The notes beneath the pieces are model-generated. The model ran no database searches, had not been told where the DNA came from, and saw only the letters and a list, made by a program, of their open reading frames with translations. Source: Elusimicrobiota bacterium (GTDB lineage: Bacteria > Elusimicrobiota > Elusimicrobia > Elusimicrobiales > Elusimicrobiaceae). Taken from it: a stretch of 35,878 bases of DNA. A program made the position numbers and the translations under genes. Location: the NCBI GenBank assembly GCA_031264445.1, contig JAISDW010000036.1, positions 1-35,878 of the forward strand, written 5' to 3'. Each line of letters opens with the position of its first letter. Within the stretch, counting starts at the first letter, position 1. Shown one piece after another: positions 1,086 through 33,595 of this stretch.

Positions 1086-1147
1086 AAATCCCTCGCCCGC
1101 CTTCGCTTCGCTACGGCGTGGCACTCCCTTTACGAAAGGGAGAAAAC
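1086..1147. repeat. family A half-element upstream of uvrB
   Basis: AAATCCCTCGCCCGCCTTCGCTTCGCTACGGCGTGGCACTCCCTTTACGAAAGGGAGAAAAC; only a few mismatches over 62 bp to 9628..9689 and to the reverse complement of 23538..23599. Confidence 0.85.
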
Positions 1148-1276
1148 TGCATAAATATCCAAAATCACAATAATGCCCTTTGCGCGAAAGGGAAAAAAGA
1201 ACTTTACGGCCAGAAAATCTTCCGCCCTTCGGGACAATTATCACGAGGGGCGTTTTCTTTTTTATATAATTTATAC

Positions 1277-3886: not shown

Positions 3887-4390
3887 TTACGGATACATAT
3901 AAACAAACCCTTCTTTTTTGGTAAATCCGGCGTCAAGACACAGTTTTACTTTTGTTTCATTTTCAGAGCCGCCGCCGGCATAGCAATTAGTTTTATTCCC
4001 GTTTAGGCCGTTATGCAAAATAAGATGAAGCCCGTTCGCAAACAACGTTTCAAAAGTAAGAGCCTTGGAGCTTGGCTGAAACCACACAAATGTATAAAAA
4101 TGAGGACTGGTAAGGGTGCACCCATTTCCTATGATGTCATCGCATGCGCCGGTAACAGTTCCGTTATAAGTAATGTCCAGTTTGCGCACATCGGTCGTAT
4201 AAACGCCGTTAGCCAGGAAATACATCTGCTCGGCATTATATAAACTGCGTTGTAACTGTACCGCTTCCGCCGCGCGGCTTCTTAAAACCGCTTTATTATA
4301 CTGCGGCAGTGCGATTGCCGCTAAAATGCCGATAATTAAAACAACAACTAATAATTCAATTAGTGTAAAAGCTTTTTTGTTGGAAAACAT
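3887..4390 (-). CDS. type IV pilin-like prepilin (N-terminal methylation motif)
   Basis: KKAFTLIELLVVVLIIGILAAIALPQYNKAV; RBS-like GGAGGC upstream. Confidence 0.93.
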   Translation of the reverse strand: MFSNKKAFTLIELLVVVLIIGILAAIALPQYNKAVLRSRAAEAVQLQRSLYNAEQMYFLANGVYTTDVRKLDITYNGTVTGACDDIIGNGCTLTSPHFYTFVWFQPSSKALTFETLFANGLHLILHNGLNGNKTNCYAGGGSENETKVKLCLDAGFTKKEGFVYMYP

Positions 4391-4503: not shown

Positions 4504-4597
4504 AGTGCGGTTAAAATTTTGACTATCGTTTTAAATTATTCTCCCTCTGCCTCCGTGAGGGAACCAAGCTTCTGTCTTTTGGTTTGCGCGGCATTTT

Positions 4598-4828
4598 CCA
4601 CCCTCACCCGCTCACTGCGTTCGCCGCCCTCTCCCGTCAAGGGAGAGGGGAACTGCCTTTCAATACTCCGTCAACTAAAATAGCATTCTTTGGCGTAATA
4701 TTGACATATCTCTTTCCGTCAAGGTATAAAGAAACTGCTATTCAAATCTCCCGCTCCCTTTATGACGGGCGAACCCTCTTTTTTTCTCCCTCTCCCTTCG
4801 TGATGGGAGAGGGCCGGGGTGAGGGTGG
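4598..4828. repeat. intergenic inverted-repeat element, family B (231 bp)
   Basis: Begins CCACCCTCACCCGCTCACTGCGTTCGCCGCCCTCTCCCGTCAAGGGAGAGGG and ends CCCTCTCCCTTCGTGATGGGAGAGGGCCGGGGTGAGGGTGG; same termini as 21290..21397 in opposite orientation. Confidence 0.8.
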
Positions 4829-8868: not shown

Positions 8869-9351
8869 TTAATTAAGCATGTATCGGTCGTAAATTGTCG
8901 CTCCACCCTTTTCTCTCGCGCCAAAGGATTTACAGGTTCCTCTATTCTCCGTTGTTTTTTCATCGCATACTATACCTGTTCCGGGTTTAAAGGAAAGGTC
9001 AGGAAAATCACTTGTAATGGCAATCAGTTTATATCTAGCATTTGGTTTTTCTATAGCATGGATTGCCCCGTTAGGATCTAAAATATAAGAGTAATGATTG
9101 TTTGGATTAGAGATATCAATTTTTACGTCAAAATCTGTCAATTGCTCAATTGTTGTTGCCGTTGTTCCATAAGTAAGTTTATATCTATCCCAAGCTTCTC
9201 TTAAAGCTTTAAGATTCATAAAGGCTTCCGTTGCTCTGCTTTTTTCAACGGCTTTTTGATATTGCGGCAAAGCAATGGCGGCAAGTATGCCGATTATTAA
9301 AACAACCACTAATAATTCAATTAGAGTAAAACCGTTTTTGGCGGATTTCAT
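8869..9351 (-). CDS. type IV pilin-like prepilin
   Basis: KNGFTLIELLVVVLIIGILAAIALPQYQKAVEKSRATEAF. Confidence 0.93.
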   Translation of the reverse strand: MKSAKNGFTLIELLVVVLIIGILAAIALPQYQKAVEKSRATEAFMNLKALREAWDRYKLTYGTTATTIEQLTDFDVKIDISNPNNHYSYILDPNGAIHAIEKPNARYKLIAITSDFPDLSFKPGTGIVCDEKTTENRGTCKSFGAREKGGATIYDRYMLN

Positions 9352-9507: not shown

Positions 9508-9689
9508 GTTTTCTCCCTTTCGTAAAGGGAGTACCGGCGCAGGGACAATTGTCCCGAAGCCGGGGAGGGATTTAATATTTCCGTTATTAAAAAGAGCCAT
9601 TTGCAGTTTTACAACTCTACAGACATTAAATCCCTCGCCCGCCTTCACTTCGCTACGGCGTGGCTCTCCCTTTACGAAAGGGAGAAAAC
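9508..9689. repeat. MITE-like intergenic element, family A, full copy 1 (182 bp)
   Basis: Termini GTTTTCTCCCTTTCGTAAAGGGAG ... CTCCCTTTACGAAAGGGAGAAAAC are inverted repeats; interior homologous to the reverse complement of 23538..23712. Confidence 0.85.
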
Positions 9690-9754
9690 AACCTTTACAA
9701 AAGAGAAAAACCCTTTCGCAATTGATAATCAGGCCTGGGCGGGGATAGCGGTAT

Positions 9755-10773: not shown

Positions 10774-13129
<2,356 letters not shown>

Positions 13130-13131
13130 GG

Positions 13132-14061
13132 CTACCTTCTTCCGGCCCTTGTTTCCAGAAAGTCAACGTATTCGGCTATGCCCTTTTCAAGAGTGTAATC
13201 TGGGGAATAGCCCGTCTTTTCCGTCGTGCAGGAAATATCGGCCTGCGTTTTAAGCTGGTAGAAGCTGTAAGGGTTTTCTATATAATCCGTGCTCAGGTTT
13301 TTGCCCAGCTCGTTATTGAGGCACTTGATAATATCGTTGAAATTGCGCGGTATGCCGGTGCCGACGTTTACAACGCAGGATTCTTTGGCATTGTTAAGCG
13401 CGCACAGATTGGCTTTTACGACGTCCCTGATATAAATGAAATCCCGTTCCTGCTCGCCCGATTTAAAAATTCTGGGGTTATTGTCTTTGCGTATCTGATT
13501 GTAGAGCTGGTATATCATGCTTGCGGTTTTGCCTTTATGGAATTCCCCCGGGCCGTACACGTTGAAATAGCGCAGCCCGACGATAACCATATCGCTGTTT
13601 GCGGCGGCGTACTGGCGGGCCACGTTATCCATAACGGCTTTGGAGAAGCCGTAAATATTTTCCGGCGCGGCTGGCTGGGAAATTTTCATCGGGCACTCCC
13701 CGTTGCCGTAAACCGCGGCCGAGGACGCGTAAATCACGCGCCTGATTTGGTTTTTTGCCGCGTAATTTAAAAGATTTTTAAAGGCTTCCACGTTTTTTTC
13801 CATCATCAGCTTCTGGTCGTGGATATCCGTATCAGTAATGGCCGCCTGGTGGAAGATAGCGTCGTAATAAGCGTCCGGCGGGAGTTTTTCCGCAAGGTCC
13901 GCGGCAATAACGTCGCCGGAGAACCCGATAAGATTTTTAAAACTGCCGGAGGAGAAATCGTCAACCACCGTCACATTGTGGCCCTGTTTCAGCAGTTCCG
14001 CCGTCAGATTGCCGCCTATAAAACCGGCGCCGCCAGTTATAAGATATTTTTTTGTGGTCAT
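13132..14061 (-). CDS. NAD-dependent sugar-nucleotide epimerase, HldD-like (ADP-heptose 6-epimerase type)
   Basis: [20 protein letters not shown] Rossmann motif, YGFSK YxxxK motif, [40 protein letters not shown]. Confidence 0.85.
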
Positions 14062-15581
14062 TTTATGTTCTCCTTAAAGACGGGCCTGAACTCGTCCAAC
14101 AAAGCTTTTATTTTGGTTTTTAGCGCGTCGTCCATCTGCGCGGCGGTTTTGATTTCCTTCAATAACTGCGGCGCTTTTACGCGGGCATAGCTTATAAGTT
14201 CCTTTTCAAAAGCGGCGACTGCGCCGACGGGTATATCGTCCACGTAGCCGCTGGTGCCGGCAAACAGCGATAAAACCTGCTCCTCTGTCAGCATGGGGCT
14301 GTACTGCGGCTGCTTGAGAAGTTCCTTCATACGCGCGCCGCGCGCCAGCTGCTGCTGGGATTCTTTATCCAGCTCACTGCCGAACTGCGAAAAACTTTCC
14401 AGTTCCTGATACTGCGCCAAATCTATGCGCAATGTGCCGGAAACCGCGCGCATGGCTTTTTTCTGCGCGCTGCCGCCCACGCGAGAAACGGATAAACCCA
14501 CGTCCACCGCCGGCTTAACGCCCGCGCGGAAGATATTGGAGTCAAGGTAAATCTGCCCGTCCGTTATGGAAATAACGTTTGTGGGTATATACGCCGAAAT
14601 ATCATTGGCCTGCGTCTCAATAATCGGCAAAGCGGTTATGGAGCCGCCGCCGTTTTTGTCGCTCAGTTTACAGGCGCGCTCCAGCAAACGCGAATGCAGA
14701 TAAAAGACGTCGCCCGGGTAAGCCTCGCGCCCGGGGGGGCGGCGCAGCAGCAGAGACATCTGCCTGTAAGCCTGCGCGTGTTTGGAAAGGTCGTCATAAA
14801 CAATAAGCACGTCTTTGCCTTTCCACATAAAATATTCAGCCATGGCGGTAGCGGCATAAGGCGCGGCGTACAGCAGCGAAGCGGCGTCCGCCGCGGCCGC
14901 GCAGACAACTATAGTATAAGGCATGGCGCCGCTGTCGGCCAAAGTTTGCACCGCCTGCGCCACCGTGCTTTGCTTCTGGCCTATTGCGACATAGATGCAG
15001 ATTACGCCTTCGCCCTGCTGCTTCTGGTTTAAAATTGCGTCTATGGCAATAGCGGTCTTGCCGGTCTGGCGGTCGCCTATAATAAGCTCGCGCTGGCCTT
15101 TGCCTATGGGCACCATGGCGTCTATGGCTTTAAGGCCGGTTTGCAGCGGCTGTTTGACGGGCTGGCGCTCCACAACGCCCGGGGCGACTATTTCCATGGG
15201 GCGGGTTTCCGTGGTTGCGGGCGCGGGTTTGCCGTCAAGCGGCTCACCCAGCGGGTTCACAACGCGGCCAAGCAGCGCTTCGCCCACGGGTATGCTGATT
15301 ACTTTGCCCGTGCGTTTTACGAGCTCGCCCTCTTTTACCAGGCTGTCGTCGCCCAGCAAAACGCAGCCGATATTATCGTATTCCAAATTTAAAACAAGCC
15401 CTTTTATGCCCGATTCAAAATCCAGCAGCTCGCCCGCGACGGCGTTACTCAGGCCGTAAACCCTGGCGATGCCGTCGCCCGCGCTGATTACGCTGCCGGC
15501 TTCGCTGAGCTGCGCCGAGGGGACAAAATTTTCTATTTCGCTTTTTATGATGGAAGATATTTCATCAGGTCTTATTGCCAT
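14058..15581 (-). CDS. atpA: ATP synthase F1 alpha subunit
   Basis: [19 protein letters not shown] Walker [34 protein letters not shown]. Confidence 0.98.
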
Positions 15582-20661: not shown

Positions 20662-21183
20662 TTACGGCATTTTATACAAATTCCAGCCCCCGTTGTCGCT
20701 TTGGTATAAGGCGGCATTATACAGGGTTTTGCACATGCCGTCCGGGACGGATGCGGCGTTAATGCAGAAAACCTGCCCGTTGGAATAGGCAAAACCGCTG
20801 AGTTTATATTTGCCGGAGGAGCGGACAATCACAACCGAGCTATACCAAAAGGGATCAGGGTGGTTGCTTATCACGTAATCAAAATACTGCCCTCCCAAGA
20901 TGCCGCCCGCAGCGTGCGCCATGATTCCCGCCACGGTTGGATTTTCCGTTGTATTCGGAATGCTTATGTCAAAATTCGCAAAAGTGAGCGACGGGCCGCC
21001 GGTGGCAAGTTTATAAAAATCCTGCGCGCGGCCCAGTGTGCCTATAAGGGTAAGGGCCTCTGCGAAGCGTCTCTTTTCCACCGCTTTTTGGTATTGCGGC
21101 AGCGCGACAGCGGCAAGAATGCCGATAATTAAAACAACGACTAATAACTCAATTAGAGTAAAAGCCTTTTTGTTGAATTTCAT
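20662..21183 (-). CDS. type IV pilin-like prepilin
   Basis: KKAFTLIELLVVVLIIGILAAVALPQYQKAVEKRRFAEALTLI. Confidence 0.93.
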   Translation of the reverse strand: MKFNKKAFTLIELLVVVLIIGILAAVALPQYQKAVEKRRFAEALTLIGTLGRAQDFYKLATGGPSLTFANFDISIPNTTENPTVAGIMAHAAGGILGGQYFDYVISNHPDPFWYSSVVIVRSSGKYKLSGFAYSNGQVFCINAASVPDGMCKTLYNAALYQSDNGGWNLYKMP

Positions 21184-21289: not shown

Positions 21290-21397
21290 CCACCCTCACC
21301 CCGGCCCTCTCCCATCACGAAGGGAGAGGGAGATAAAAAAAGATACCCTCTCCCTTGATGGGAGAGGGCGGCGAACGCAGTGAGCGGGTGAGGGTGG
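21290..21397. repeat. intergenic inverted-repeat element, family B (108 bp)
   Basis: CCACCCTCACCCCGGCCCTCTCCCATCACGAAGGGAGAGGG ... CCCTCTCCCTTGATGGGAGAGGGCGGCGAACGCAGTGAGCGGGTGAGGGTGG. Confidence 0.8.
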
Positions 21398-21488
21398 AAA
21401 GATTCTTCTCTCTTTGGTAAAGAAGGAAAAAGATATGTGCTCCGCGCCGTCATGCCAAACGCTTCTTTAAAATTGTTATAATTTGCAT

Positions 21489-23417: not shown

Positions 23418-23537
23418 GGCTGGTAAAAGAAGGCTGGGGAAATAAGGTTCAGAAAATGAGGGTAAGGAAAGAAGATTTAAAAAATAAAAGGCGCGGCACA
23501 TTAGTGGAAGGAAAGGCTCGTCAAAATTGTCATGGCT

Positions 23538-23712
23538 GTTTTCTCCCTTTTGTAAAGGGAGTGCCACGCCGTAGCGAAGTGAAGGCGGGCGAGGGATTTA
23601 ATGGCCGTAAATCTTTAAAATTGTAAACTGCTTTTTTTGATAACGGCTTATATTAAATCCCTCCCCGTTTTCGCTCCGCTCAGCCGGTACTCCCTTTACA
23701 AAAGGGAGAAAA
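23538..23712. repeat. MITE-like intergenic element, family A, full copy 2 (175 bp)
   Basis: GTTTTCTCCCTTTTGTAAAGGGAGTGCCACGCCGTAGCGAAGTGAAGGCGGGCGAGGGATTTAAT ... ATTAAATCCCTCCCC...ACTCCCTTTACAAAAGGGAGAAAA; opposite orientation to 9508..9689. Confidence 0.85.
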
Positions 23713-25557: not shown

Positions 25558-25581
25558 AAAAGTTTTCACATGAAAACTTTT
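25558..25581. promoter_or_regulatory. parS-like palindrome 1
   Basis: AAAAGTTTTCACATGAAAACTTTT; core resembles parS TTTCACGTGAAA; between the parB stop and its terminator. Confidence 0.65.
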
Positions 25582-25596
25582 GCTTTTATAATCTTT

Positions 25597-26466
25597 CTAT
25601 AACATTTTACTTTTAAGTCTTTCTGCCAGCCTGTCCAGTTCTTCAAGTGAATTATAGTGCAGCATCAAAATGCCTCTGCCGTGTTTTGAGCTTTGGCGCA
25701 GCTCAACTTTTGCGCCAAGCGCTTCTTGGAGGCTCTGCTCAAAAGACTGTATATCGGGCGTTTTGGCGGTTTTTTTGGTTTCCTTTGAAGGCAGCAAAAG
25801 CGCGCGGGCCGCGCTCTCCGCCTGCCGCACGGACATCTTGCCCGCGATAATCTTTTTCAGCAAAATATCTTGCTTTTTTTCATCAGAGAGCATTAAAAGC
25901 GCGCGGCCGTGGCCTTCGGTTATTTTGCCGGAAGAAATGGCTTCCTGTATGCCGGACGGAAGCTCCAGCAGGCGCAAGGTATTTGAGACCGCCGCTTTAG
26001 ACTTGCCGCAGTATTCGCCCAGCTCGCTCTGCGATACTTCAAATTTTTGTATCAAGCTCCTATAGCCCAAGGCGGTTTCTATGGGATTCAGATTTTCGCG
26101 CTGGATATTTTCTATAAGAGCAAGGGCGCAAAGCTGTTTTTCGTCCAGTTTGGAATGGACTATAGCCTGCACATCTTTAAGGCCGGCCAGCTGGGTAGCG
26201 CGCCAGCGGCGCTCACCCACGACGAGTTCATATTTATCCAGCCCGCTGTCATATACAACAACCACCGGCTGCGTCAGCCCGTGCTGCTTGATGGACTGCG
26301 CCAGCTCCTTAAGGCTTTCTTCATTAAAAGTTTTGCGTGGCTGGTAGCGGTTGGGGATTATTTTATTGACAGGTATGCTTTGTACCCCATTATTGCTGCT
26401 GCCGTCCTGCGGGATTTGCGCCCCGCCTAAAAGGGCCTCCAGCCCTTTGCCTAAGGCTTGTCTCAT
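25597..26466 (-). CDS. parB: chromosome partitioning protein ParB
   Basis: MRQALGKGLEALLGG, IPNRYQPRKTFNEESLKELAQSIKQHGLTQPVVV, GERRWRATQLAGL, ENIQRENLNPIE, HTH GEYCGKSKAAVSNTLRLLELP. Confidence 0.97.
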   Translation of the reverse strand: MRQALGKGLEALLGGAQIPQDGSSNNGVQSIPVNKIIPNRYQPRKTFNEESLKELAQSIKQHGLTQPVVVVYDSGLDKYELVVGERRWRATQLAGLKDVQAIVHSKLDEKQLCALALIENIQRENLNPIETALGYRSLIQKFEVSQSELGEYCGKSKAAVSNTLRLLELPSGIQEAISSGKITEGHGRALLMLSDEKKQDILLKKIIAGKMSVRQAESAARALLLPSKETKKTAKTPDIQSFEQSLQEALGAKVELRQSSKHGRGILMLHYNSLEELDRLAERLKSKML

Positions 26467-26471
26467 GTTAA

Positions 26472-27305
26472 TTATCCTCCGAAGTCAAAATCCGCTTTTA
26501 TGCCGGCGGAATACTGATAATCTTTATAATCCCCGGGTTTTGCGCCGCGGCGTTCAAGAAATTCAACGGCTAAATCAAGGTAGGCGCGCGTGCCGCGGCA
26601 GGAAGGGTCATATTCAAAAATGCTTTGGCCGAAGCTCGGTGCTTCCGCCAGGCGGATATTGCGCGGTATAGGCGTTTTATAGACTTTATCGCCGTAGAAT
26701 TTAGAAATTTCATCTTTAACCTGATTGGCCAGATTCATGCGGGCGTCATACATGGTAAGAATACCGCCGTCAACCTTAAGCTGCGGGCTCAAAAATTGCT
26801 TTACTTTACCCGTTGTATTGATAAAATGTGCAAGGCCTTCCATAGCATAATATTCACATTGTATAGGGGAAATTACACTGTCCGCCGCTACAAGCGCATT
26901 TATGGTTAAAAGGCTCAACGACGGGGGGCAATCTATAATGATAAAATCATACATCTTTTTTACTGTGGAAAGCGCTTCCCTGAGCACTTTTTCCCGCCCG
27001 GGGAGGTTTACAAGCTCCACTTCTGCGCCGGCAAGATCTTTGCTGGCGGGCAAAACATCTAACAGTTCATGGCTGCTCTGGCGTACAATATCTTTAAAAG
27101 CCGCTGTTCTGGTAAGCAGATGGTAAACCGATTTTTCATCATCTTTCAATATAATGCCCAAGCCTGAACTTGCATTGCTCTGCGGGTCAAAATCAACCAG
27201 TAAAACCTCCTGCCCGAGGCAGGCCAAAGCATAGGAAAGATTTACGGAAGTCGTCGTTTTGCCGACGCCGCCCTTCTGATTTGCGACGCATACTATTTCG
27301 CCCAT
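26472..27305 (-). CDS. parA: chromosome partitioning ATPase ParA/Soj
   Basis: VCVANQKGGVGKTTTSVNLSYALA deviant Walker A, VLLVDFDPQSNASSGLGI, FIIIDCPPSLSLLTINAL. Confidence 0.97.
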   Translation of the reverse strand: MGEIVCVANQKGGVGKTTTSVNLSYALACLGQEVLLVDFDPQSNASSGLGIILKDDEKSVYHLLTRTAAFKDIVRQSSHELLDVLPASKDLAGAEVELVNLPGREKVLREALSTVKKMYDFIIIDCPPSLSLLTINALVAADSVISPIQCEYYAMEGLAHFINTTGKVKQFLSPQLKVDGGILTMYDARMNLANQVKDEISKFYGDKVYKTPIPRNIRLAEAPSFGQSIFEYDPSCRGTRAYLDLAVEFLERRGAKPGDYKDYQYSAGIKADFDFGG

Positions 27306-27399
27306 ATAATACTCCCAACTGTTTTAAAATTATATAAATATTAAATATAATAAATAGCGCGAAGTCAAGCGCGCAGGAGGGGCGGCATGGATTGATTGA

Positions 27400-27423
27400 C
27401 TGAGTTTTCACGTGAAAATTTTA
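27400..27423. promoter_or_regulatory. parS-like palindrome 2
   Basis: CTGAGTTTTCACGTGAAAATTTTA with exact TTTCACGTGAAA core, upstream of parA. Confidence 0.7.
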
Positions 27424-27447
27424 TATGTTTGCGCAGGATTGGCCACA

Positions 27448-27471
27448 AAAAGTTTTCATGTGAAAACTTTT
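27448..27471. promoter_or_regulatory. parS-like palindrome 3
   Basis: AAAAGTTTTCATGTGAAAACTTTT, exact reverse complement of palindrome 1 over 24 bp. Confidence 0.65.
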
Positions 27472-28565: not shown

Positions 28566-31094
28566 CTAATCTGCGGCTTTGGCTGGTGCGCCGGCGGCGC
28601 CTTCCGCATCCTCGCGGCGCTCCTCTTCTTCCTTTACCACGGGGGCCACGCGGGCAATCCTGTCGCCGTCGTCCAGCTTGACAAGCCTTACGCCCTGCGC
28701 GTTGCGGCCCACGCTGCGGATTTCTTCGCACCGGATGCGTATGGCCATGCCCTTTTCGGTGATAATCATGAGGTCTTTGCTCTCGTCCACCAGTTTTATG
28801 CCGACCACCGGGCCGTTGCGCTCGCTCGTTTTAATAGTTATAACGCCCGATCCGCCCCTGTTCTGCGTGCGGTATTCGCCAAACTCGGTGCGTTTGCCGT
28901 AGCCGTTTTCGCAGACGGAAAGAACATCCGGCTGCGCGCTTTCGCGCGGGGCGTGCTCCATGCCTACGGCACTGTCGCCCTCGGCCATGCGTATGCCTAT
29001 CACGCCTTTGGCCGTGCGGCCCATGGCGCGCACCTGATTTTCGTCAAATCTTATTGATTTGCCCTGCCTGGTGGCTATTACGATATCGCTCTTGCCGTTT
29101 GTAAGCTGGACTGACATCAGCACGTCGCCTTCTTCCAGCCCGATGGCGATTATGCCCGTGCGGCGGATATTGGCAAACTCAGCGAGCTCGCAGCGTTTTA
29201 TGGTACCCATACGCGTGCACATAGTAAGGTAAGTCTCGCCCGCGTTTTTGGGGTCAAAATCGCAAATGGCGACGGCGGAGGTAACTTTCTCCTCCCCTGA
29301 TATCTGCAGCAGATTGACTATAGCCTTACCCTTGCTCTGGCGGTTGCCTTCGGGGATTTCAAAGGCTTTTAAGGCAAATACGCGCCCGCGGTTGGTAAAC
29401 ATAAGTATAGTGGCGTGGCTGGAGGTGACGAAAAGATGCTCTATAAAATCCTCTTCTTTCGTCTTGCCGCCGATAATGCCCTTGCCGCCGCGGTTCTGCG
29501 ATTTGTAAGTGTCCAGCGGTATGCGTTTTGCATAGCCGTCGTTGGAAAGAGTGATTACGACGTCTTCCTCATCAATCAAATCTTCTATTGAAAAGTCAGT
29601 GATATCGGTGGAAATTTCGGTGCGGCGTTTGTCGCCGTAATCCTTAATCATCTGATTAAGTTCCTGTACGATGATTTCCAGGACGCGCTGAGGGCTGCCA
29701 AGGATATCCTGCAGGTCTTTGATGAGAGAGGCAAGTTCTTTTTGCTCCTGCTCTATTGCCAGCGAAGACAGCTGCGTAAGCTGGTGCAGGCGCATATCAA
29801 GTATGGCCTGCGTCTGCGCCTCGCTGAGCGAGAATCTTTTGATTAAAGCCAGTTTAGCCTCGTTTGCGTCGCGCGATTTGCGGATTATGGCGACAACTTC
29901 ATCCATATTGGCCAGCGCGACAAGGAAGCCCTGCAAAACGTGGTCGCGCTTTAAAGCCTTGTTTAAATCAAAGCGCGTGCGGTTGTTGACGATTTCCTGC
30001 CGGTGCCTGACATACTGGCGCATGACGTCTTTTATGCCCAGCACGCGCGGCTTGCCGTCAACTATGGCAAGCATATTCACGCCGAAGCTGGTTTGCAGCT
30101 GCGTGTGTTTGAAAAGCTGGTTTAAAACGACCTGCCCCGTGGCGTCGCGTTTTAATTCTATCACAAGGCGCATGCCGCGGCGGTCGGATTCGTCGCGGAT
30201 ATCCGAAATTTCTGTTATCTTTTTATCGCGCACCAGGCCGGCTATTGATTCTATCAGATTGGTTTTGTTGACCTGATAGGGGATTTCGGTCACAATAATG
30301 GCTTCGCGGCCGCCTTTCATTTCCTCTATCTCCGCGCGCGCCTGCAGTTTGAGCGAGCCGCGGCCCGTCTCAAAATAATCCATTACGCCTTTTGTGCCGC
30401 GCAGTATGCCGCCCGTGGGGAAATCCGGCCCTTTTACTATGTGCATCATTTCCCTGGTGGTTATTGCGGGGTTATTAATAATCTCTATTATGCCTTTGCA
30501 AACTTCCGCCAGATTATGCGGGGGAATATTTGTCGCCATGCCGACGGCAATGCCGCTTGAGCCGTTTACAAGCAGCTGCGGAATTTTGGCGGGCAGCACC
30601 GAAGGCTCCTGCAAAGAACCGTCGTAGTTGGGGATAAATTTTACCGTGTCTTTATCAAGGTCGCTGAGCAGTTCGTCCGCTATGGCCTGCAGGCGGACTT
30701 CCGTATAACGCATAGCAGCCGGATAGTCGCCGTCTATTGAGCCGAAGTTTCCCTGACCGTTGACCAGCATATTGCGCATTGAAAAATCCTGCGCCATGCG
30801 CACCAGCGCGTCATAAACCGCGACGTCGCCGTGCGGGTGGTATTTACCCAAAACGTCGCCGACGACGCGGGCGGATTTTTTATAGGGCTTATTGTATTTG
30901 AGGCCCATTTCATCCATTGCGTAAAGTATGCGGCGGTGTACTGGCTTAAGGCCGTCGCGCACGTCGGGCAGGGCGCGGCCCACGATTACGCTCATCGCAT
31001 AGTCTATATAGGAGGATTTCATCTCCTCCCCGATATCGCGCTGCCTGACGCTGCCGAATAAATCTATATTTTTTTGTTCATTGGTTTCTGCCAT
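28566..31094 (-). CDS. gyrA: DNA gyrase subunit A
   Basis: [72 protein letters not shown]; GyrA-box-like QNRGGKG. Confidence 0.98.
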
Positions 31095-31105
31095 AAAATT
31101 TTCCT

Positions 31106-33595
<2,490 letters not shown>

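What the first reader, a model, noticed from the sequence alone, without database searches (positions are those of the whole stretch)
25558..27471. Three parS-like palindromes bracketing parAB, with a diverged flank
AAAAGTTTTCACATGAAAACTTTT (25558-25581), CTGAGTTTTCACGTGAAAATTTTA (27400-27423) and AAAAGTTTTCATGTGAAAACTTTT (27448-27471). Sites 1 and 3 are exact reverse complements over 24 bp. The core matches canonical parS (TGTTTCACGTGAAACA) at TTTCACGTGAAA but the outer bases differ (AGTTTT...AAAACT). Sites 1 and 3 have an asymmetric centre (CACATG/CATGTG). This suggests a lineage-specific parS and an origin-proximal locus.
Basis: partly seen in the sequence, partly recalled or inferred. Interest (0 to 1): 0.6.

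Follow-up and report, generated by a model that had tools for sequence, protein, structure and literature searches.

The report
Rewritten bacterial centromere code in Elusimicrobia
The three palindromes are the chromosome's own ParB-loading sites (parS), but written in a changed code, GTTTTCAC instead of GTTTCAC in each half, that goes hand in hand with loss of an arginine in ParB said to be invariant, a paired change that recurs in several distant groups of bacteria.

Summary
The three sites are the only matches at <=1 mismatch in the 1.57 Mb genome (0.08 expected). They flank parAB, and no canonical parS is present. In a single-contig relative the same locus lies within 7.4 kb of the contig junction beside dnaA, where GC skew switches.

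The flank is not random drift. Each half-site carries one extra T: GTTTTCAC (class X) instead of (T)GTTTCAC (class Y), so the outer G sits 1 bp further out. ParB residue 157, equivalent to Caulobacter R173, which hydrogen-bonds G1 of parS and was called absolutely conserved in ParB, is lysine here.

Across about 160 ParB loci, Y sites always go with R173 (56/56). No non-R173 locus was class Y. Of all ParB columns, 173 predicts site class best. The pairing recurs in Omnitrophota and other phyla, in genomes chosen by DNA motif before the protein was read. One Elusimicrobiales genus with R173 uses both half-site types, sometimes in one palindrome.

I read this as a coupled, reversible ParB-parS specificity switch within an otherwise ordinary chromosomal ParABS. 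Binding was not tested, and the phylogenetic test was underpowered (5 supported independent pairs, none opposed).

The parts
25558..25581 (.). parS-like site 1, AAAAGTTTTCAC|ATGAAAACTTTT, downstream of parB
   Evidence: exact match to GTTTTCAYRTGAAAAC; exact reverse complement of site 3.
27400..27423 (.). parS-like site 2, CTGAGTTTTCAC|GTGAAAATTTTA, in the parA upstream region; one half imperfect
   Evidence: 1 mismatch to GTTTTCAYRTGAAAAC.
27448..27471 (.). parS-like site 3, AAAAGTTTTCAT|GTGAAAACTTTT, in the parA upstream region
   Evidence: exact match.
25597..26466 (-). parB, 289 aa: ParB_N, HTH_ParB and ParB_C domains, with GERRWRA and ENIQR motifs
   Evidence: Pfam; the only HTH_ParB in the genome; motifs read from the translation.
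25996..25998 (-). codon of ParB K157, equivalent to Caulobacter R173, the residue that contacts base 1 of parS
   Evidence: Alignment to the chain in 6t1f (GKSK versus GKSR); top-ranked column of the scan.
25984..25986 (-). codon of ParB S161, equivalent to Caulobacter A177, the second-ranked co-varying column
26472..27305 (-). parA, 277 aa, ParA/MinD-type ATPase with KGGVGKTT Walker A
   Evidence: Pfam AAA_31 2.8e-65.
28566..31094 (-). gyrA (context: origin-type gene neighbourhood)
   Evidence: NCBIfam; next to dnaA/dnaN in relative G079.
31277..33577 (-). gyrB (context)
   Evidence: NCBIfam.

Best explanation
The palindromes are the functional parS sites of this chromosome. ParB dimers load on them, spread as CTP clamps and are moved by ParA, as in any chromosomal ParABS (this part follows from family knowledge). 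What is unusual is the recognition code. The half-site has gone from (T)GTTTCAC to GTTTTCAC, so base 1 is T instead of G and a G now stands one base further out. ParB has correspondingly lost the arginine (R173) that reads G1 in ordinary ParB; here it is lysine. Shown: the sites, their uniqueness and position, the residue, and the co-occurrence of residue and site class across several phyla. Inferred: that the residue change causes the altered preference, with R173 imposing G1 and its loss, usually to K and usually with S177, allowing or favouring T1 with G0.
For: Uniqueness and position. Single ParB in the genome. Same motif beside parAB through the order, canonical parS in the other clades, nearly disjoint. 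Contingency: Y sites 56/56 R173; X sites 76 non-R (K, V, P, I, S) and 11 R. Without choosing the column beforehand, position 173 ranks first of all ParB columns and 177 second (balanced accuracy 0.943 and 0.900). Half-sites with G1: 86/86 in Y loci, 3/238 in non-R X loci, 21/118 in the R173 X/mixed loci (Fisher 1.8e-8 for the last two). Replication chosen by DNA motif first: an 18-mer scan of 85k species found non-Elusimicrobiota sites, and ParBs found beside them have K, V or P at 173. In a second phylum, X genomes have K, I or S, and Y genomes all have R. X genomes whose adjacent ParB lacks R173 have no canonical site. GC content does not explain it: X and Y loci both have median 0.45 and span 0.26-0.66. 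Structure: R173 hydrogen-bonds G1, and parS-specific variants in a deep mutational scan had invariable R173 (PMC7383237). Origin proximity in a relative.
Against: Eleven class X loci and eight mixed loci in Elusimicrobiales have R173, so loss of R is not required for T1 half-sites. No binding data exist for any of these proteins. Phylogenetically independent pairs on supported branches are few: 5, all the same way or tied, p 0.0625; 3 in a second tree, p 0.25.
Confidence: 0.86

Rival explanations
1. Ordinary parS with neutral flank drift. ParB specificity is unchanged and positions 0 and 1 simply do not matter here.
For: The 12-bp core TTTCACGTGAAA is identical to canonical parS. Some R173 ParBs live with both half-site types.
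Against: Positions 0 and 1 are 92% G and 96% T among half-sites of non-R173 class X loci, not random. G1 half-sites are nearly absent beside non-R173 ParBs (3/238) and universal in Y loci (86/86). In Caulobacter, position 1 is read by R173 (PMC7383237).
Confidence: 0.07
2. The sites are operators for autoregulation of parAB, or for another regulator, rather than centromeric loading sites.
For: In several f15 loci two copies sit directly after a sigma-70-like promoter of parA. Two of the window's sites are upstream of parA.
Against: Site 1 is downstream of parB. Two f1 genomes carry the motif at 8-10 places on several contigs with unrelated flanks, as dispersed parS do. Canonical parS occupies the same location in sister clades (e.g. 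L048-L050). Site sequence tracks the ParB recognition helix. The two roles are not exclusive.
Confidence: 0.05
3. They are intrinsic transcription terminators (A/T-rich hairpins at gene ends).
For: Sites 1 and 3 can fold as AU-rich hairpins (-10.5 and -11.1 kcal/mol). Site 1 follows parB.
Against: Site 2 does not fold (-1.1 kcal/mol). The terminator scan does not list any of them. They do not recur at other gene ends. Sites with the same core recur at the same loci across phyla and track the ParB recognition helix, which a terminator would not need.
Confidence: 0.02

Closest known systems
Canonical chromosomal ParABS (Caulobacter, B. subtilis Spo0J/Soj), parS TGTTTCACGTGAAACA
   Same: parA-parB operon, three-domain ParB, GERRxRA and ENIQR boxes, palindromic sites beside parAB near the origin, shared 12-bp core, contact residues Q162, K171, N178, G201 and R204 retained.
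   Different: Half-site GTTTTCAC instead of GTTTCAC; R173 replaced by K; A177 replaced by S.
Noc / NBS (Bacillus), ATTTCCCGGGAAAT
   Same: A ParB-family case where changing residue 173 goes with a change of base 1 (Q173 with A1).
   Different: Noc also has K179, K184 and R201, and C at position 6. Here T179, E184 and G201 are present, position 6 stays A, and the protein falls below the Noc model cut-off (238 versus 315 bits).
Bdellovibrio bacteriovorus parS TGTTCCACGTGGAACA (PMC10547168)
   Same: Natural chromosomal parS variant; its ParB did not accumulate on Caulobacter parS in that paper.
   Different: The change is at position 4 (T to C); G1 is kept.

Membership tests
Chromosomal ParABS | parA-parB operon with deviant Walker A ATPase | tested here: met
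   Pfam calls on ParA and ParB; KGGVGKTT in ParA.
Chromosomal ParABS | ParB with N-terminal CTPase fold (GERRxRA, ENIQR), HTH and C-terminal dimerisation domain | tested here: met
   PF02195, PF17762 and PF23552 all above cut-off; GERRWRA and ENIQREN in the translation.
Chromosomal ParABS | Palindromic parS sites near parAB and the replication origin | tested here: met
   Three sites only at parAB. Relative G079: parAB 5.6-7.3 kb from the contig end, dnaA at the other side of the junction, GC-skew switch there. For the window's own genome, origin proximity is inferred from gyrAB.
Chromosomal ParABS | parS sequence TGTTTCACGTGAAACA within about 2 mismatches | tested here: not met
   None in the genome at <=2 mismatches, with positions 5 and 12 free; class X differs at 4 positions. 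This is a variant property, not a test of the system.
Chromosomal ParABS | Arginine at position 173 of ParB | tested here: not met
   K157 in the window ParB.
Chromosomal ParABS | ParB binds the sites, hydrolyses CTP and spreads | not testable with these tools
   Needs protein biochemistry or ChIP.
Noc/NBS | Q173, K179, K184, R201 and NBS sites | tested here: not met
   K, T, E, G at these positions; NCBIfam Noc score below cut-off.
Intrinsic terminators | G+C-rich stem followed by a T run at gene ends | tested here: not met

The most novel reading that the evidence does not exclude
A third natural ParB-family recognition code, beside ParB/parS (R173 with G1) and Noc/NBS (Q173 with A1): residue 173 not arginine, mostly K, paired with a half-site lengthened by one base (G0T1). 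It has arisen and reverted several times in distant phyla. In one living genus R173 ParBs use palindromes that mix the old and new half-sites, a natural dual-specificity state of a kind that laboratory mutational paths to Noc did not need.
Probability: 0.6. Interest if true: 0.75.

Novelty: new variant of a known kind. Interest (0 to 1): 0.62.

Why it matters
parS is usually treated as one of the most conserved DNA elements in bacteria, and R173 of ParB was described as absolutely conserved (PMC7383237). Here a natural, repeated change of both partners is visible in genomes, with canonical, mixed, shifted and further diverged stages. That makes the question of how an essential protein and its DNA site change together, without losing chromosome segregation, testable with existing proteins. 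Practically, parS searches with the canonical motif miss the centromere of most Elusimicrobiales and some other phyla.

Tried and rejected
Terminator hypothesis: rejected. Noc-like protein: rejected. GC-content confounding: rejected. Simple rule 'K173 is necessary for GTTTTCAC': rejected, because 11 class X and 8 mixed Elusimicrobiales loci have R173, and V, P, I and S occur elsewhere. Rule 'S177 is sufficient': rejected, because 10 canonical loci have S177. R173 as the ancestral intermediate of the mixed-site genus: not supported; in the tree that genus is nested inside K173 branches (98 and 99% SH-aLRT), which looks more like reversion, but the root is not known. The paper library holds no paper printing GTTTTCACGTGAAAAC, and the 2007 parS survey of Livny et al. 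is not held. The last genome search, meant to find R173 relatives of the CSMAG lineage, returned only 5 genomes, the four with a match all K173 with X sites.

Full report
OBSERVATION. In the window and in the whole genome they are the only matches to GTTTTCAYRTGAAAAC at <=1 mismatch, where 0.08 would be expected. Weaker matches are at chance level. No canonical parS occurs, even at 2 mismatches. The genome has one ParB-type HTH protein, the one between the sites. The protein is a standard three-domain ParB beside a standard ParA.

ORIGIN. The window carries gyrB and gyrA next to parAB. In single-contig relative G079 (1,643,562 bp, which I take from memory to be Elusimicrobium minutum) dnaA, dnaN (both recognised by eye from the translation), gyrB and gyrA lie at 0.5-8.6 kb. 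parA-parB lies at 1,637,978-1,636,269, that is 5.6-7.3 kb from the contig end. GC skew of sampled 20-kb stretches is positive from position 1 to about 758 kb and zero or negative from 820 kb to the end, so the switch is at the contig junction. For the window's own fragmented genome the same position is an inference.

THE CODE. Caulobacter numbering is used: half-site (T0)G1 T2 T3 T4 C5 A6 C7, centre, inverted. In the window the half-site reads G0 T1 T2 T3 T4 C5 A6 C7: one more T, with G one base further out. In the ParB-parS crystal structure R173 hydrogen-bonds G1. Noc has Q173 and A1. R173 was called absolutely conserved in ParB, and parS-specific variants of a deep mutational scan all had R173 (PMC7383237). 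The window ParB has K at that position (GKSK for GKSR). The other contact residues (Q162, G170, K171, S172, N178, G201, R204) are retained, which fits the unchanged inner core.

PHYLUM SURVEY. Among 341 genomes of the phylum, AGTTTTCAYRTGAAAACT (<=1 mismatch) occurs in 126 and TGTTTCACGTGAAACA (<=1 mismatch) in 94, nearly disjoint and by clade. The window's family and most of its order are class X. Within the order, genus g16 is canonical, and within family f15 genus g60 is canonical. Reading ParB in these loci gives R173 for canonical and K173 for most X loci.

ASSOCIATION. Over the loci with both features: canonical sites go with R173 in 56/56. X sites go with K, V, P, I or S in 76 and with R in 11. 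Mixed sites go with R in 8 and K in 2. Ten further-diverged loci are all K. A scan of all ParB columns, with no column picked in advance, ranks 173 first and 177 second. Half-sites with G1 are 86/86 in canonical loci, 3/238 in non-R X loci and 21/118 in R173 X/mixed loci (Fisher p 1.8e-8 between the last two). These counts are of related sequences; the p-value does not correct for relatedness.

REPLICATION IN OTHER PHYLA. The exact 18-mer was sought in 85k species: 85 stretches, most from Elusimicrobiota. Where ParB lay close by in other groups, residue 173 was K in Omnitrophota (L170, L238, L239, L242), K in records labelled Pseudomonadota (L217), Actinomycetota (L216) and an unnamed bacterium (L195), V in a Clostridiaceae record (L199) and P in a Coriobacteriales record (L190). 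In the phylum of G349, titled Omnitrophota, X genomes gave K, I or S, and canonical genomes gave R in every case read. Genomes in which an 18-mer was isolated and far from ParB served as controls: G353 has R173 and two canonical sites.

PHYLOGENY. On a ParB tree built without the DNA-binding columns, site class changes at least 10 times and residue 173 at least 12. Of 5 independent pairs on supported branches, on average 4.7 go the same way and none the other, median p 0.0625. A second, smaller IQ-TREE analysis gives 12 and 14 changes and 3 supported pairs, none opposed. So repeated joint change is likely, but the formal test is underpowered. The R173 genus with mixed sites is nested among K173 branches with 98-99% support, which suggests reversion of K to R with partial return of G1 half-sites. 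The root and direction are not proved.

FURTHER DIVERGENCE. In family f15 the parA upstream region carries paired sites such as GTTTTCAC|GTTTGAAC, GTTTTCAC|GAGTAAAC and GTTTTCTC|AAGAAAAC. All these ParBs are K173. The code seems to keep drifting there.

MECHANISM. Most likely, R173 makes G1 obligatory. Its loss, often after or with A177S, removes that requirement and selects sites with T1 and G0. The R173 Elusimicrobiales with T1 half-sites show that other residues contribute. Everything downstream (CTP clamp, spreading, ParA movement) is inferred from the family.

VERDICT. The larger result is a recurring, coupled change in a pair of molecules regarded as nearly invariant. It is a new variant of a known system, not a new system.

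Noticed in passing
L084, L085, L089-L093, L096 upstream of parA (family f15): parS-like sites diverged beyond class X (GTTTTCAC|GAGTAAAC, GTTTTCAC|GTTTGAAC, GTTTTCTC|AAGAAAAC), mostly as pairs about 36-40 bp apart just after a sigma-70-like parA promoter.
   Followed up: partly
G068 (10 copies) and G023 (8 copies), e.g. L184, L189, L202, L221, L227-L229, L235, L241, L179, L183, L209, L230: Two genomes of family f1 carry many dispersed copies of the 18-mer with unrelated flanks, like the dispersed parS of some Firmicutes. The match of these handles to the named records is by copy number and coordinates.
   Followed up: partly
L009 / L203 (G300 contig C196, 3389 bases): A contig in an Endomicrobium bin encodes a ParB 74% identical to the window's, with three X sites, while the same bin also has three canonical parS matches; probably a mis-binned contig or a transfer.
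   Followed up: no
L279 (genome G440, phylum of G349): Nine copies of TGTTCCACGTGGAACA-type sites near parB, the Bdellovibrio-like parS variant.
   Followed up: no
window 12230-15581: An NAD-dependent epimerase gene (13132-14061) lies between atpA and atpG in the F1 ATPase cluster.
   Followed up: no
window 3887-4390, 8869-9351, 20662-21183: Three dispersed pilin-like genes with nearly identical N-terminal methylation segments; 186-nt shared 5' regions.
   Followed up: partly
window 1086-1150, 9581-9700, 23527-23646; 4595-4828 and 21290-21400: Dispersed repeats of 53-120 nt, 86-97% alike, in both orientations, mostly between genes; probably a genome-wide interspersed repeat.
   Followed up: no
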